NCBI RefSeq assembly: GCF_023887685.1
Contig: NZ_JAMWMR010000020.1
Location: 62,001 to 126,000 of the forward strand
Source of the DNA: Streptomyces macrolidinus
GTDB taxonomy: Bacteria > Actinomycetota > Actinomycetes > Streptomycetales > Streptomycetaceae
Length of the DNA stretch: 64,000 nt
Direction of reading: 5' to 3'
Below the pieces are notes generated by a model. The model was not told the DNA's origin. It did no database searches and saw only the letters and a list, made by a program, of their open reading frames with translations. This document shows, piece by piece, positions 29,422 to 33,619 of the stretch (the first letter of the stretch is position 1; every line of letters begins with the position of its first letter). The position numbers and the translations under genes were made by a program.

Positions 29422-30059
29422 TCGCCGAGGACTCACTGCTGCTGCGCGTCGGGCTCGTCAAGGTCCTGGAAATGGCCGGCTTCGAGATCGCCGCCGAAGT
29501 CGGCGACGCCGAAGCCCTGCTTGCGGCCGTCGAGGAACACCGGCCCGGGCTGGCCCTGGTCGATGTCCGCATGCCACCCGGCTTCACCGACGAAGGCGTG
29601 CGCGCCGCGCTGGTGATCCGTGAGCAATGGCCGCAGACCGCGGTGGTACTGCTCTCGCAGTACGTCGAGGAGCGGTATGCGGCCGACCTGCTGACGGCCA
29701 ACACCAGCGGCGTCGGCTACCTGCTCAAGCAACGCGTCGCAGACGTGGAGGAGTTCGTGGCTTCCGTTCGGCGGGTTGCAGCCGGGGGCACGGCACTGGA
29801 TCCACAGGTGGTCGCCCAGTTGCTCGTGCGCCGCCGCAGTGACCCGCTCGATCGGCTGACGCCACGCGAACGGGAGGTACTCGCCCTGATGGCCGAGGGA
29901 CGCTCCAACACCGGGATCGCCGAGGCCCTGGTCGTCAGCGACAGCGCAGTGGCCAAGCACATCAACAACATCCTCGCCAAACTCGACCTGCGCGCAGCCG
30001 ACGCCGACCACCGGCGCGTTCTCGCCGTCCTGAGATTCCTCGGCGCTTCCCCGACCTGA
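29409..30059 (+). CDS. NarL/LuxR-type response regulator
   Basis: 216 aa, ATG at 29409 inside the kinase 3' end. Receiver domain 1-120: acidic pocket AEDS near residue 7, phospho-Asp in ALVDVRMP near 53, Lys in GYLLKQR near 105. LuxR-type helix-turn-helix at about 150-205 (LTPREREVLALMAEGRSNTG, followed by SDSAVAKHINNILAKLDL). It is the cognate partner of the kinase. The 100 bp downstream holds a 28-bp copy of SGNH-hydrolase coding sequence. Confidence 0.94.
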   Translation: MRAVIAEDSLLLRVGLVKVLEMAGFEIAAEVGDAEALLAAVEEHRPGLALVDVRMPPGFTDEGVRAALVIREQWPQTAVVLLSQYVEERYAADLLTANTSGVGYLLKQRVADVEEFVASVRRVAAGGTALDPQVVAQLLVRRRSDPLDRLTPREREVLALMAEGRSNTGIAEALVVSDSAVAKHINNILAKLDLRAADADHRRVLAVLRFLGASPT

Positions 30060-30093
30060 CCGACCCGCCGCCCGCACCCCTACCGCCGTTCGG

Positions 30094-30121
30094 CATGACG
30101 ATCGGCAGCTCGGGCGAACAC
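30094..30121 (+). repeat. 28-bp fragment duplicated from the SGNH hydrolase gene
   Basis: Bases 30094-30121 match 32962-32989 at 27 of 28 positions. The right copy is codons of the intact SGNH gene (Met-Thr-Ile-Gly-Ser-Ala-Gly-Glu-His); the left copy sits in non-coding DNA after the response regulator. The two copies bracket the disrupted regulator, the tnpB element and the hydrolase remnant. Confidence 0.7.
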
Positions 30122-30710
30122 CGCGCACGCGTCTCACGGGCTGGGGCAAGGGCGGCTGTCTACGCGTGATCCGAGCGTGGCGTGGCGGTGCCGTCCTGAT
30201 TCGTTTCCGTTCTGCTGTAGAGGACTTCGCGGCCCTGTTCCGCCGCGCGGATGAGGCCTTCGCTGACGAAGTCCAGGAAGCGGGCGGCGTTCTCCAGGCG
30301 GGTGGCTGCCGGGGTGCCGCGGCCGAGGACGGCGACGCCTTGCCGTGCGGTCTCGATGAACTGGTCGTTGGCTCGGGCGCTGCGGATCATCGCTTGGTAC
30401 CAGAGGTCGTCGTCGACGACGTAGCGCTCGCGGCGGCGTTGGTCGCGTTCTCGGCGGACGAGGTCCTGGCTCTCGAGGAACGTGATCGCTTTGGAGATGG
30501 ACGCCGGGCTGACCTGGAGACGCTCGGCGAGTTCGGAGGCGGTGAGGCTGCCGCTGTCGGTGGTGTAGAGGCAACCCAGCACCCGGGCCATCATCTGATT
30601 CCTTTCGTGGATACCCCCGCCTTCAGGTGGGGGAGGAAACGAAACTCCTGCGGAGCAGGGCAAGGGCGGGGTTTCGCCGTCAAGGCGAAAGACTGTGCTC
30701 TGGCCCGCAG

Positions 30711-30744
30711 TTGACTCTCACAAGCGGCTTCACTAGCTTGTGAG
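30711..30744 (+). promoter_or_regulatory. tnpB promoter overlapped by a perfect 9-bp inverted repeat
   Basis: TTGACT (30711-30716), 17-bp spacer, TAGCTT (30734-30739). CTCACAAGC (30717-30725) and GCTTGTGAG (30736-30744) are exact inverted repeats overlapping the -10 and ending 2 bp before the GTG at 30747. The start point would be almost at the start codon, implying a leaderless or near-leaderless mRNA and a built-in operator or hairpin. Confidence 0.55.
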
Positions 30745-30746
30745 CC

Positions 30747-31940
30747 GTGACCATGACGCAGGTGAAGCGGGCGTTCAAGTACCGCTTCTATCCCACGGAC
30801 GCGCAGGCAGCGGAGCTGTCCCGCACGTTCGGCTGTGTGCGCAAGGTCTACAACATGGCGCTCGCCGCCCGGACCGAAGCATGGGCCAGGCGGGAACGGG
30901 TCAACTACAACCAGACGTCGGCGATGCTGACGGCGTGGAAGAAGACCGAGGAACTGGCGTTCCTGAACGAGGTCTCCTCCGTGCCGCTGCAGCAGTGCCT
31001 GCGGCACCTGCAGACAGCGTTCACCAACTTCTTCGGCAAGCGGGCGAAGTACCCGCGTTTCAAGTCGAAGAAGAAGTCGCGCAGGAGCGCCGAGTACACG
31101 ACCAGCGGGTTCCGCTTCCGCGACGGCAGGCTGACCCTGGCGAAGACGACCGACCCGCTGGCGATCGTGTGGTCCAGGCCCTTGCCGGAGGGTGCACAGC
31201 CCTCGACGGTGACCGTGTCGCAGGACGCGGCCGGCCGCTGGTTCGTGTCGATGCTGGTCGAGGACCAGGCTGTCAGGCCGCTCCCGGCCGTGGATACGGC
31301 GGTCGGTATCGACGTCGGGCTGGATCATCTGCTGACCTTGTCGACCGGTGAGAAGATCGCCAATCCCCGGCACGAACGCAAGGACCGTGCCCGGCTGGCG
31401 AGAGCACAGCGTGTCCTTGCCCGTAAGGAGAAGGGCAGCCGGAACCGGGCGAAAGCCCGGCGCAAGGTCGCCAGGATCCACGCCCGGATCGCCGACCGCA
31501 GGCGGGACTTCCTGCACAAGCTGACCACTCGACTCGTGCGTGAGAACCAAACGCTCGTGATCGAGGACCTGACCGTGCGCAACATGGTTCGGAACCACAC
31601 CCTGGCCCGCGCGATCAGTGATGCCGCGTGGTCGGACTTCCGGAGCATGCTGGAGTACAAGGCGAGCTGGTACGGGCGCAACGTGGTCGCGGTCGACCGC
31701 TTCTTCCCGTCCTCCAGACTGTGCTCGGACTGCGGCGCCTTGCAGAACAAGATGCCCTTGAACGTCCGTACCTGGACGTGCGACTGCGGCACGACCCATG
31801 ACCGGGATGTGAACGCGGCGAAGAACTTGCTGGCCGTCGGACTGACGGTGTCGGCCTGTGGAGCTGGTGTAAGACCTCAACGGAGCACTCCGGGCGGGCA
31901 GTCGGCGGTGAAGCAGGAAACCCCACGGCGCGAGCCGTAG
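30747..31940 (+). CDS. tnpB: TnpB RNA-guided endonuclease
   Basis: 397 aa from the GTG at 30747 (ATG at 30753 also possible). The N-terminal WED/REC-like part starts VKRAFKYRFYPTDAQAAELS and includes YPRFKSKKKSRRSAEYTT. The RuvC-like nuclease residues are all kept: Asp in GIDVGLDH (about 189), Glu in VIEDLTVRNM (about 273), Asp in HDRDVNAAKN (about 354). The zinc finger CSDCG/CDCG lies between about 324 and 348. It should be an active omega-RNA-guided DNA nuclease that maintains the element by cutting emptied sites. It is the only gene of the element. The tail after the last RuvC motif overlaps the predicted omega-RNA. Confidence 0.93.
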   Translation: MTMTQVKRAFKYRFYPTDAQAAELSRTFGCVRKVYNMALAARTEAWARRERVNYNQTSAMLTAWKKTEELAFLNEVSSVPLQQCLRHLQTAFTNFFGKRAKYPRFKSKKKSRRSAEYTTSGFRFRDGRLTLAKTTDPLAIVWSRPLPEGAQPSTVTVSQDAAGRWFVSMLVEDQAVRPLPAVDTAVGIDVGLDHLLTLSTGEKIANPRHERKDRARLARAQRVLARKEKGSRNRAKARRKVARIHARIADRRRDFLHKLTTRLVRENQTLVIEDLTVRNMVRNHTLARAISDAAWSDFRSMLEYKASWYGRNVVAVDRFFPSSRLCSDCGALQNKMPLNVRTWTCDCGTTHDRDVNAAKNLLAVGLTVSACGAGVRPQRSTPGGQSAVKQETPRREP

Positions 31941-31990
31941 GAATCCCCCTCCTTCAGGAGGGGGAGGAAGTCAACTTGGGCAGTCCCGAG
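31840..31990 (+). ncRNA. predicted omega-RNA (reRNA) with guide in flanking DNA
   Basis: In characterised TnpB systems the guide RNA derives from the 3' end of tnpB and the element right end, and the guide is the adjacent genomic sequence. Here the 8-bp stem hairpin at 31945-31964 and the conserved GAGGAAG-TCAA end at 31974; the guide would start at 31975 with CTTGGGCAGTCCCGAG. The 5' boundary (31840) is only an estimate from the lengths of known reRNAs. The 3' half of the gene before it supplies the rest of the scaffold. Confidence 0.6.
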
Positions 31991-32289
31991 ATCATGTAGA
32001 CGGTGGTGAGCGCCTCCTGATAGTCGTGCACGGCCTGGGCGTCGCGGCCGTAGGGCTGCGGGGATGCCTGTGCCCCTCGGGGTGCGGCCTGTCTGCGTCC
32101 GTGGGTGCGCTGTTGGGTGGCGCGGTGGGCCAGGTCGGCGCGGTAGGCGGTGGGGCCGCCGTTGCGTGTCACCTCGCGCGTGATCGTGGAGGTCGGACGG
32201 TCGAGACGGCGGGCGATCTCGGCGTAGGCCAGGCCGTCGGCCAGCCCCGTCGCGATCTGCCGGCGCTCGGACTGGGTGAGCCTGCCTCC

Positions 32290-32841
32290 CATGTGCCCGC
32301 CGACAAGATCGACCGACTGCCGCCGTGCTACACGCCGAACCCTGAGACCGGGGAGTTCACCGTGTGGGACGAGGCGGTGGGCGGGCAGTACAGCACGCCT
32401 CCGGCGTTCCCGTCGGGCGGTGGTGGTCTTGTCTCCACCGTCGACGACTACCACGCCTACTTCCGGATGCTGCTGAACCACGGGACGCACGACGGCGAAC
32501 GCATCCTGTCCCGGCCGGCCGTGGAGCTGATGACCACCAACTGCCTCACCCCCGCGCAGCAGGCCGCCCGCAGCGACCTGGCCCGCAACAACGTCCACAT
32601 CTCCTTCGGCCAGGGACAGCACGGCGGCTGGGGCTACGGCATGGCCGTACGCACCTACCGCGGCGACTACGCGCCGGTCGGCCAGTTCGGCTGGGACGGC
32701 GGTACCGGCACCACCGCCTACGCCGACCCGCACAACGGAGTCGTCGGCGTCCTGCTGACCCAGGTGGGGCTGTCCCTCCCGGCACCGGCACAGCTCATCC
32801 ACGACTTCTGGACCACGCTCTACCAGGCGCTCGACGACTGA
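32290..32841 (+). pseudogene. beta-lactamase-family serine hydrolase, 3' remnant
   Basis: The last 183 codons of a class C beta-lactamase/esterase-type gene with no start or active-site half. The visible part begins HVPADKIDRLPPCYTPN and contains GQYSTPPAFPSGGGGLVST (substrate-pocket loop of the family), RILSRPAVELMTTNCLTP, then GWGYGMAVRT, FGWDGGTGTTAYADPHNG and a normal C-terminus. The SxxK motif is lost. The coding homology starts at 32290, exactly where the start codon of the opposite-strand regulator lies (32290-32292), so a recombination joined the two. It is not expected to be expressed as an enzyme. Confidence 0.8.
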
Positions 32842-32873
32842 CCCGAACCCTGAACTGCCCCTTTCCCTGCCCG

Positions 32874-32912
32874 CACGCGCGCGTGGCGGACCTCACGCCC
32901 CACGCGCGCGTG
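32874..32912. terminator. 13-bp inverted repeat after the hydrolase remnant
   Basis: CACGCGCGCGTGG (32874-32886) and its exact complement (32900-32912) with a 13-nt loop. It lies 33 bp after the stop of the remnant and 20 bp before the SGNH gene, separating the accessory stretch from the next core gene. Confidence 0.75.
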
Positions 32913-32932
32913 TGATCGACCATCATTGAGCG

Positions 32933-33619
32933 GTGCTCAGGTTCATGCCCGTAGGCGACTCCATGACGATCGGCAGCGCGGGCGAACACACCTGGCGCTA
33001 CCGGCTGTGGCAGCACCTGTGCGCAACGTACAACGGGCCCTGCAAGCTCGTCGGCCCGCGTGAGACGTTGTACGACAAGGTCGCGGACGCGCCGACGTCG
33101 TACGCCTACGCCGAGCCGGACTTCCCGCGCACGCATCTCGCGGGCTGGGGCGAGGGCTGGCTGCACATGGCGCCGTTGATAGCCGAGGCCGTACGGACCT
33201 CGCGGGCGGACGTGCTGCTCGTCTCCCTCGGCCTGATCGACCTGGGCTTCTACACGAACGCGGAGCAGACCGCCGAGAACGTACGGGCCTTCGTGACGCA
33301 GGCGCGCACGGCGAACCCGCGGCTGCGCATGGTCGTACTGCCGGTGATCCCGAACATACGGGCCGAGGCGGACGAGTCGTTCGCCGCGCAGGTGGCCCTC
33401 TTCAACGACCTCCTCGCGAAGGCCGTCGCCGACCTGGACGAGCCCCGCTCCCCGCTGCTCCTGGCCACTCCCCCGGCGGACTACGACTTCCACCGCGACA
33501 CCTACGACGGCACGCACCCGAACGCGAGCGGCGAGCACAAGATCGCGGCGGCGTTCGCGGAGGCCATGCACCAGGCATGGGACTTCGGTCAGCCGTATGC
33601 GGCGGCCGGAACGAGCTGA
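32933..33619 (+). CDS. SGNH/GDSL-type hydrolase
   Basis: 228 aa from the GTG at 32933. Block I is MPVGDSMTIGSAG (nucleophile Ser about residue 10). The final block DGTHPNASGEHK carries the Asp and His of the triad, and the central strand LLVSLGLIDLGF corresponds to block III. Its usual GxND Asn is replaced (GLID), so the oxyanion hole differs from the standard. There is no signal peptide, so the product is probably cytoplasmic. Twenty-eight bases of its 5' coding region recur at 30094. It may be an esterase or lipase-like acylhydrolase; the natural substrate is not known. Confidence 0.85.
   Translation: MLRFMPVGDSMTIGSAGEHTWRYRLWQHLCATYNGPCKLVGPRETLYDKVADAPTSYAYAEPDFPRTHLAGWGEGWLHMAPLIAEAVRTSRADVLLVSLGLIDLGFYTNAEQTAENVRAFVTQARTANPRLRMVVLPVIPNIRAEADESFAAQVALFNDLLAKAVADLDEPRSPLLLATPPADYDFHRDTYDGTHPNASGEHKIAAAFAEAMHQAWDFGQPYAAAGTS

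What the first reader, a model, noticed from the sequence alone, without database searches (positions are those of the whole stretch)
30160..32292. tnpB-only element inserted cleanly into a GbsR/MarR regulator, reconstructable to 250 aa
Seen: deleting 30595-31974 joins GLPK to MMARV in frame and gives 106 + 144 residues. Known: IS200/IS605 elements insert without target duplication and tnpB-only forms lack TnpA. Inference: recent insertion, so the regulator's targets may now be deregulated. The RuvC D/E/D residues and zinc-finger cysteines are intact, so the nuclease may be active.
Basis: partly seen in the sequence, partly recalled or inferred. Interest (0 to 1): 0.7.

Follow-up and report, generated by a model that had tools for sequence, protein, structure and literature searches.

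The report
Mobile element carrying replacement ribosome site
A small Streptomyces jumping element that tends to land on the start codons of genes appears to bring its own replacement ribosome-binding site, so the gene it displaces could still be translated; in this window it landed inside a regulator gene instead.

Summary
30595-31974 is a tnpB-only IS200/IS605-type element inside a MarR-type regulator. Deleting it gives an open 250-aa frame, and the gene is uninterrupted in 19 of 19 congeneric loci opened.

The larger finding is how this family inserts. Its target TCAT is the antisense of ATGA, and its left end, read outward, supplies a Shine-Dalgarno (SD) sequence mostly 5-8 nt before that ATG. 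An SD core occurs in 124 of 127 copies, against 1 of 23 in a CCAT-targeting family and 3 of 9 in a TTAC family (by eye). The SD segment used changed at least 47 times on the element tree. Without the window's copy, 74 of 125 copies sit at predicted start codons, against 95 of 1072 control ATGA sites. The right end restores a stop at ATGA gene overlaps in 26 copies.

I propose translation-repairing insertion; translation itself is untested. Here the element sits on an internal Met-Met and could restart only the C-terminal 144 aa. "Deregulation" is unsupported: the regulator's upstream surroundings were already replaced.

The parts
30595..31974 (+). whole element, tnpB-only IS200/IS605 type, 1380 bp
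   Evidence: ends shared with aligned copies of the family; empty site in relatives
30591..30594 (+). target-adjacent motif TCAT (antisense of ATGA); here part of the internal ATGATG of the regulator
   Evidence: TCAT at the left border in 82 of 88 copies of the first set
30600..30606 (-). outward Shine-Dalgarno match GAAAGGA, 5 nt before the ATG at 30594-30592
   Evidence: read from the sequence; class GAAAGGA@5 in 14 of 127 copies; SD core in 124 of 127
30614..30633 (.). left-end hairpin
   Evidence: repeat pair D1 and sequence
30747..31940 (+). tnpB, GTG start, 397 aa, RuvC motifs and zinc ribbon present
31833..31974 (+). probable guide (omega) RNA scaffold: 3' end of tnpB plus right end
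   Evidence: weak Rfam HgcC match 31833-31987, 24 bits, gathering score 50; conserved fold in 10 copies, 6 of 48 pairs with changes on both sides
31945..31964 (.). right-end hairpin, preceded by GAAT at 31941-31944
   Evidence: GAAT as in IS608
31971..31974 (+). right cleavage site TCAA; outward TTGAC gives a TGA at ATGA overlaps
31975..31990 (+). presumed 16-nt guide taken from the flank
   Evidence: position by analogy with ISDra2; one TCAT site with two mismatches elsewhere in the genome
31975..32292 (-). N-terminal 106 codons of the regulator, HTH_38 domain
30160..30594 (-). C-terminal 144 codons of the regulator, MarR winged helix; begins MMARV

Best explanation
This is a non-autonomous, tnpB-only IS200/IS605 element of a family that is translationally self-repairing. 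Shown by sequence: it inserts 3' of TCAT without duplication; the ATG in that motif stays at its left border; its left end carries an outward SD at proper spacing; its right end, read outward, gives TGA at ATGA gene overlaps; most copies sit at predicted start codons. Inferred: a Y1 transposase acts in trans; TnpB with its guide RNA cuts the empty allele and so keeps the element in place; the left-end SD is kept by selection because it lets the displaced gene be translated although its native SD now lies 1.4 kb away, which is why insertions exactly on start codons survive. In this window the element landed on an internal ATGATG of a regulator whose upstream region is also lost; the likely product is two cistrons (106-aa HTH_38 part, re-initiated 144-aa MarR part) and not a plain knock-out. 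Translation and the transcript that would carry the displaced gene were not tested.
For: SD core 3-12 nt before the border ATG in 124 of 127 copies, mostly at 5-8 nt. Duplex with the recalled 16S tail: median -9.6 kcal/mol in 82 copies, -5.0 at 320 control ATGA sites. Different segments of the SD are used, at least 47 changes among six classes on a FastTree tree of the inner element. Column shuffles lower the share of strong duplexes from 94% to 57% on average; 0 of 300 reach it. Start-like sites: 74 of 125 without the window, against 95 of 1072 control ATGA sites and 27 annotated starts of 316 ATGA sites; in-frame internal sites 3 of 126 against 165 of 1072. Native SD still visible beyond the right end in 64 of 127, control 49 of 312. 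Annotated gene start exactly at the border in 2 of 4 annotated plasmid copies. Comparison families: SD core 1 of 23 (CCAT), 3 of 9 (TTAC, by eye). tnpB open over 360 aa or more in 121 of 127.
Against: No expression data. No conserved outward promoter was seen, so transcription must come from outside; two terminator-like sites on the outward strand lie just before the left hairpin (three such sites in the region, 1.0 expected in shuffles). The SD region is no more open than the native one (mean unpaired probability 0.43 and 0.44, shuffled leader 0.39). 48 of 126 copies were classed 'other', so many insertions are not at recognisable starts; 2 of 4 annotated plasmid copies have no gene start at the border. 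The CCAT family, almost without SD, is also somewhat enriched at starts: 4 of 20 against 13 of 226, p=0.04. Shared descent may inflate the shuffle test. Only one insertion, the window's own, was checked against empty sites in relatives.
Confidence: 0.72

Rival explanations
1. Ordinary tnpB-only insertion: the SD-like motif is a transposase or DNA-structure requirement in the linker between cleavage site and hairpin and has no role in translation.
For: The motif lies in the left-end linker, next to sequences that the transposase must handle; all copies share ancestry.
Against: The conserved thing is complementarity to the 16S tail, not one sequence or position: GGAGG, GGAGGT, GAAAGGA, AAGGAG, AGGAGG in several registers, at least 47 changes on the tree. 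Two related tnpA+tnpB families have linkers of similar length mostly without it.
Confidence: 0.15
2. Start codons are over-represented because gene starts are open or single-stranded more often; the SD is incidental.
For: IS200/IS605 elements use single-stranded DNA (recalled; also the introductions seen).
Against: Around annotated genes there are 37 ATGA sites within 60 nt of a start for 27 on a start; among insertions 74 are start-like, but only 3 of 52 others have a predicted start within 60 nt (background 21 of 284; the start caller finds 33 of 75). The effect is exact to the codon.
Confidence: 0.08
3. In this window the insertion is a plain knock-out: neither half of the regulator is made or works.
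For: The site is internal, the regulator's 5' surroundings are replaced, and the C-terminal half lacks what precedes MMARV.
Against: Both halves are open; ATGATG with a 7-nt SD match 5 nt away starts the C-terminal half.
Confidence: 0.5

Closest known systems
ISDra2 and its TnpB (IS200/IS605, Deinococcus radiodurans)
   Same: TnpB of the same kind (262 bits), right-end guide RNA whose last about 16 nt come from the flank (PMC8612924, passages), insertion without duplication
   Different: ISDra2 has tnpA and uses TTGAT; this family lacks tnpA, uses TCAT and carries an outward SD
IS608 (Helicobacter pylori)
   Same: right end GAAT - hairpin - TCAA as listed for IS608 (PMC5934647, passages)
   Different: IS608 targets TTAC and carries tnpA; the TTAC family in this genome has weak outward SD
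IS1341-type tnpB-only elements (name recalled)
   Same: tnpB without tnpA between IS605-type ends
   Different: no report of start-codon sites or a donated SD was found in ten library searches
IStrons
   Same: a mobile element made harmless to the gene it enters (abstract of PMC4227781)
   Different: IStrons remove themselves from RNA by a group I intron; here no intron family was matched and repair would be at translation start and stop

Membership tests
IS200/IS605, tnpB-only | TnpB with OrfB_IS605 and zinc-ribbon domains | tested here: met
   PF01385, PF07282, PF12323 over cut-off
IS200/IS605, tnpB-only | insertion 3' of a fixed short motif, no target duplication | tested here: met
   TCAT at the left border, exact empty sites
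IS200/IS605, tnpB-only | subterminal hairpins and C/G cleavage-guide sequences | tested here: met
   hairpins 30614-30633 and 31945-31964; right end GAAT/TCAA; the left guide was not tested
IS200/IS605, tnpB-only | no tnpA in the element | tested here: met
   only tnpB has family matches within the element; the genome's Y1 matches lie on other contigs
IS200/IS605, tnpB-only | mobilised by a Y1 transposase | not testable with these tools
   five near-full-length Y1 matches elsewhere in the genome
active RNA-guided TnpB nuclease | RuvC D/E/D and zinc ribbon | tested here: met
   motifs at residues 187, 272, 352 and cysteines
active RNA-guided TnpB nuclease | guide RNA with conserved structure | tested here: inconclusive
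   conserved fold with few compensatory pairs; HgcC match below gathering score
MarR/GbsR regulator | MarR winged helix in the rejoined protein | tested here: met
   PF01047 37 bits, cut-off 24.6
MarR/GbsR regulator | membership in GbsR in particular | tested here: inconclusive
   no GbsR-named model was matched; N-terminal HTH_38 is extra
IStron | group I intron in the element | tested here: not met
   the three Rfam matches at E<=1 over 29500-33000 include no intron

The most novel reading that the evidence does not exclude
A widespread actinobacterial transposon family is translationally self-repairing: its target motif is the antisense of a start codon, its left end donates a selected ribosome-binding site to the gene it displaces, and its right end restores the stop codon of the upstream gene, so insertions between co-translated genes are nearly silent, while the RNA guide, made from the displaced native leader, lets TnpB police the empty allele.
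Probability: 0.65. Interest if true: 0.87.

Novelty: new variant of a known kind. Interest (0 to 1): 0.78.

Why it matters
How transposons avoid hurting their hosts is an open question. IStrons do it by splicing; this would be a simpler answer at the level of translation. It would explain why these elements collect at gene starts, predict which genes stay expressed after insertion, give an annotation rule (an ATG at the element's left border is often a true start), and it can be tested with one reporter construct. It also means that many guides in this family are made from native ribosome-binding regions.

Tried and rejected
Accessibility of gene starts as the cause of the start-codon excess: tested, disfavoured.

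Outward promoter in the left end: none seen by eye in the consensus of 127 copies and no sigma-70-like site in 30400-32400; other promoter types are not excluded.

Other targets of the guide: a 20-nt TAM+guide pattern with up to 3 mismatches gave three sites in the genome: the element's own junction, one TCAT site with two mismatches, one without TCAT.

Repeated insertion at the same start codon: three pairs among 127 (P-II, GH4, ABC permease) share a start. Element identity 84, 79 and 83%; gene side 90, 79 and 89%; other side 78 (110 nt only), 84 and 89%. Shared old insertions are possible, so I claim nothing.

SD accessibility by folding: no difference from native leaders.

Simple patterns for the three catalytic motifs matched 80, 122 and 110 of 127 copies; the patterns are crude and I draw nothing from them.

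Borrelia IS605B stem-loops beside lipoprotein genes (PMC2775950, passages) are at 3' ends, a different matter.

Structure prediction and fold search were not run.

Classifier limits: it calls the window's own internal Met-Met 'start-like', so I subtract that copy (74 of 125, not 75 of 126). Of 147 distinct insertions, 20 were dropped for lack of a TCAT at the anchor or of a located right end; by eye at least 11 of the 20 show TCAT followed by an SD complement. In one search, 12 of 86 new loci gave no paired ends and were left out.

Full report
Observation. The element and the rejoined frame are as described. The joined 753 nt encode 250 aa with the GLPK-MMARV join. The joined DNA matches at E<=0.001 in 280 of 295 congeneric genomes, many of them weakly; in 19 of 19 loci opened the gene runs through the junction, 6 of them with exactly GLPK-MMARV. 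The element occurs once in full in its 6.78-Mb genome, with three partial matches elsewhere. Its DNA has matches in 239 of 392 congeneric genomes, many of them partial. The 80 best relatives in named genomes are mostly Streptomyces, with others in Nocardiopsis, Plantactinospora, Micromonospora, Actinomadura, Sphaerimonospora, Kitasatospora, Yinghuangia and Lentzea.

Anatomy. TnpB is intact and its best natural matches among solved structures are 8h1j and 8bf8 (ISDra2 by recall). Both ends carry similar hairpins, and the right end has GAAT, hairpin, TCAA, as listed for IS608 (PMC5934647, passages). The tnpB 3' end and right end fold into a conserved structure in 10 copies and resemble Rfam HgcC weakly, below its gathering score. 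That HgcC-type RNAs are TnpB guide RNAs is recalled.

The unexpected property. The left motif is TCAT, which outward is ATGA, so the first nucleotides of the element are the leader of any frame that starts there. I compiled 147 distinct insertions; for 127 both TCAT and the right end were located. An SD core (GGAG, GAGG or AGGA, 3-12 nt before the ATG) is present in 124 of 127, mostly at 5-8 nt (82 copies). The part of the SD consensus that is used differs: GGAGG, GGAGGT, GAAAGGA, AAGGAG, AGGAGG. On a FastTree tree of the inner element, six such classes need at least 47 changes. Permuting letters within columns among 101 distinct linkers lowers the share of strong duplexes from 94% to 57% on average, and 0 of 300 shuffles reach the observed share; shared descent can inflate this test. 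tnpB is open over at least 360 aa in 121 of 127 copies.

Sites. A classifier from GC periodicity finds 26 of 27 annotated ATGA starts in 100 kb of two Streptomyces plasmids, with 14 false calls among 287 other ATGA sites. It of 126 insertions start-like (one copy too short), among them the window's own, which relatives show to be internal, hence 74 of 125. Controls: 95 of 1072 ATGA sites in the flanks; 27 annotated starts among 316 ATGA sites. In-frame internal sites are rare: 3 of 126 against 165 of 1072; 48 of 126 were 'other'. The native SD is still visible beyond the right end in 64 of 127, against 49 of 312 control sites. Of 42 start-like copies with a frame of at least 100 aa I chose 20, partly for recognisable N-termini: 20 of 20 have Pfam matches, including P-II and M55 from residue 1, GH4 from residue 2 (two copies) and MreB from residue 11. 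Of six plasmid records opened, four have features near the element; in two of these four a gene is annotated to start exactly at the border: rfbB and an FAD-dependent oxidoreductase.

Right end. Outward it reads TTGAC, or TTGGC in some copies. In 26 of 127 copies the upstream frame is predicted coding up to an ATGA-type junction, and in 26 of 26 the element supplies a TGA at the second codon position read. In the annotated rfbB case the stop of the upstream thymidylyltransferase gene lies inside the element. Since TCAA is also the right cleavage site of IS608, this may be luck and not an adaptation. It is also no excess over nature as far as I could see: 6 four-nucleotide overlaps counted by eye in the two annotated tables against 27 ATGA starts.

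Comparison families. A tnpA+tnpB family with TTAC in the same genome has weak outward SD: -1.6 to -5.3 kcal/mol in nine linkers, an AGGA core in three. Another uses CCAT, the antisense of ATGG, so it could use starts equally well; 1 of 23 linkers has an SD core, and 4 of 20 scorable copies are start-like against 13 of 226 control ATGG sites, still a slight excess, p=0.04. The TCAT family differs from it in start use (74 of 125 against 4 of 20, p=0.001). A third family, with a copy on contig C1, has the SD core in 4 of 9 rows, some of which may be wrongly anchored; 3 of 6 scorable ones are start-like. The trait may thus have arisen or moved more than once. Accessibility of gene starts predicts many insertions near but not on starts; these are not seen.

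This window. The element sits on ATGATG inside the regulator, with GAAAGGA 5 nt before it. In 19 of 19 relatives homology ends at 32289-32290, where a truncated serine hydrolase follows in the window. Three of four relatives examined have a divergent neighbour gene there that the window lacks (DUF4097-like by recall). The genome holds no second close copy of the regulator; the best other match is 38% over 179 residues with one stop. The locus may have been under relaxed selection; what the element adds is a possible restart of the C-terminal domain.

Mechanism, with status. Shown: ends, motif, SD, stop, site distribution. Inferred: transposase in trans (five near-full-length Y1 matches elsewhere); retention by cutting the empty allele, as proposed for ISDra2 (PMC8612924, passages); translation of the displaced gene; selection for it. 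Open: which transcript carries the displaced gene. No outward promoter was seen, and two terminator-like sites precede the left hairpin on the outward strand.

Literature. Ten searches of the open-access library, passages of seven papers and the abstract and outline of an eighth showed no description of an IS200/IS605 end that donates a ribosome-binding site, nor of start-codon targeting. Most subscription papers are outside that library. On re-checking I kept my odds; the facts mended were wordings and denominators.

Noticed in passing
32296-32841: C-terminal part of a serine hydrolase (beta-lactamase family, PF00144 profile positions 216-310) abuts the regulator's start; relatives have no such gene there.
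   Followed up: partly
own contig C1 (L219/L257), contig C48 (L217/L287): Two other tnpA+tnpB families with CCAT-like targets (antisense ATGG); the C1 family has an SD core in 4 of 9 rows, the C48 family in 1 of 23.
   Followed up: partly
30988-31256, minus strand: Below-threshold match to RF02743, described as an antisense Saccharopolyspora sRNA, on the strand opposite tnpB (36.6 bits, gathering 74): possibly antisense transcription of a related tnpB in the outward direction.
   Followed up: no
own contig C49:64535-64554: A TCAT site with two mismatches to the window's guide, the only TCAT-bearing near-match found.
   Followed up: no
30644-30664, minus strand: Two overlapping terminator-like sites just before the left hairpin on the outward strand.
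   Followed up: no
L008/L064, L013/L162, L115/L172: Three pairs of copies at the same start codon in different genomes (P-II, GH4, ABC permease), with different SD segments; shared or repeated insertion not resolved.
   Followed up: partly
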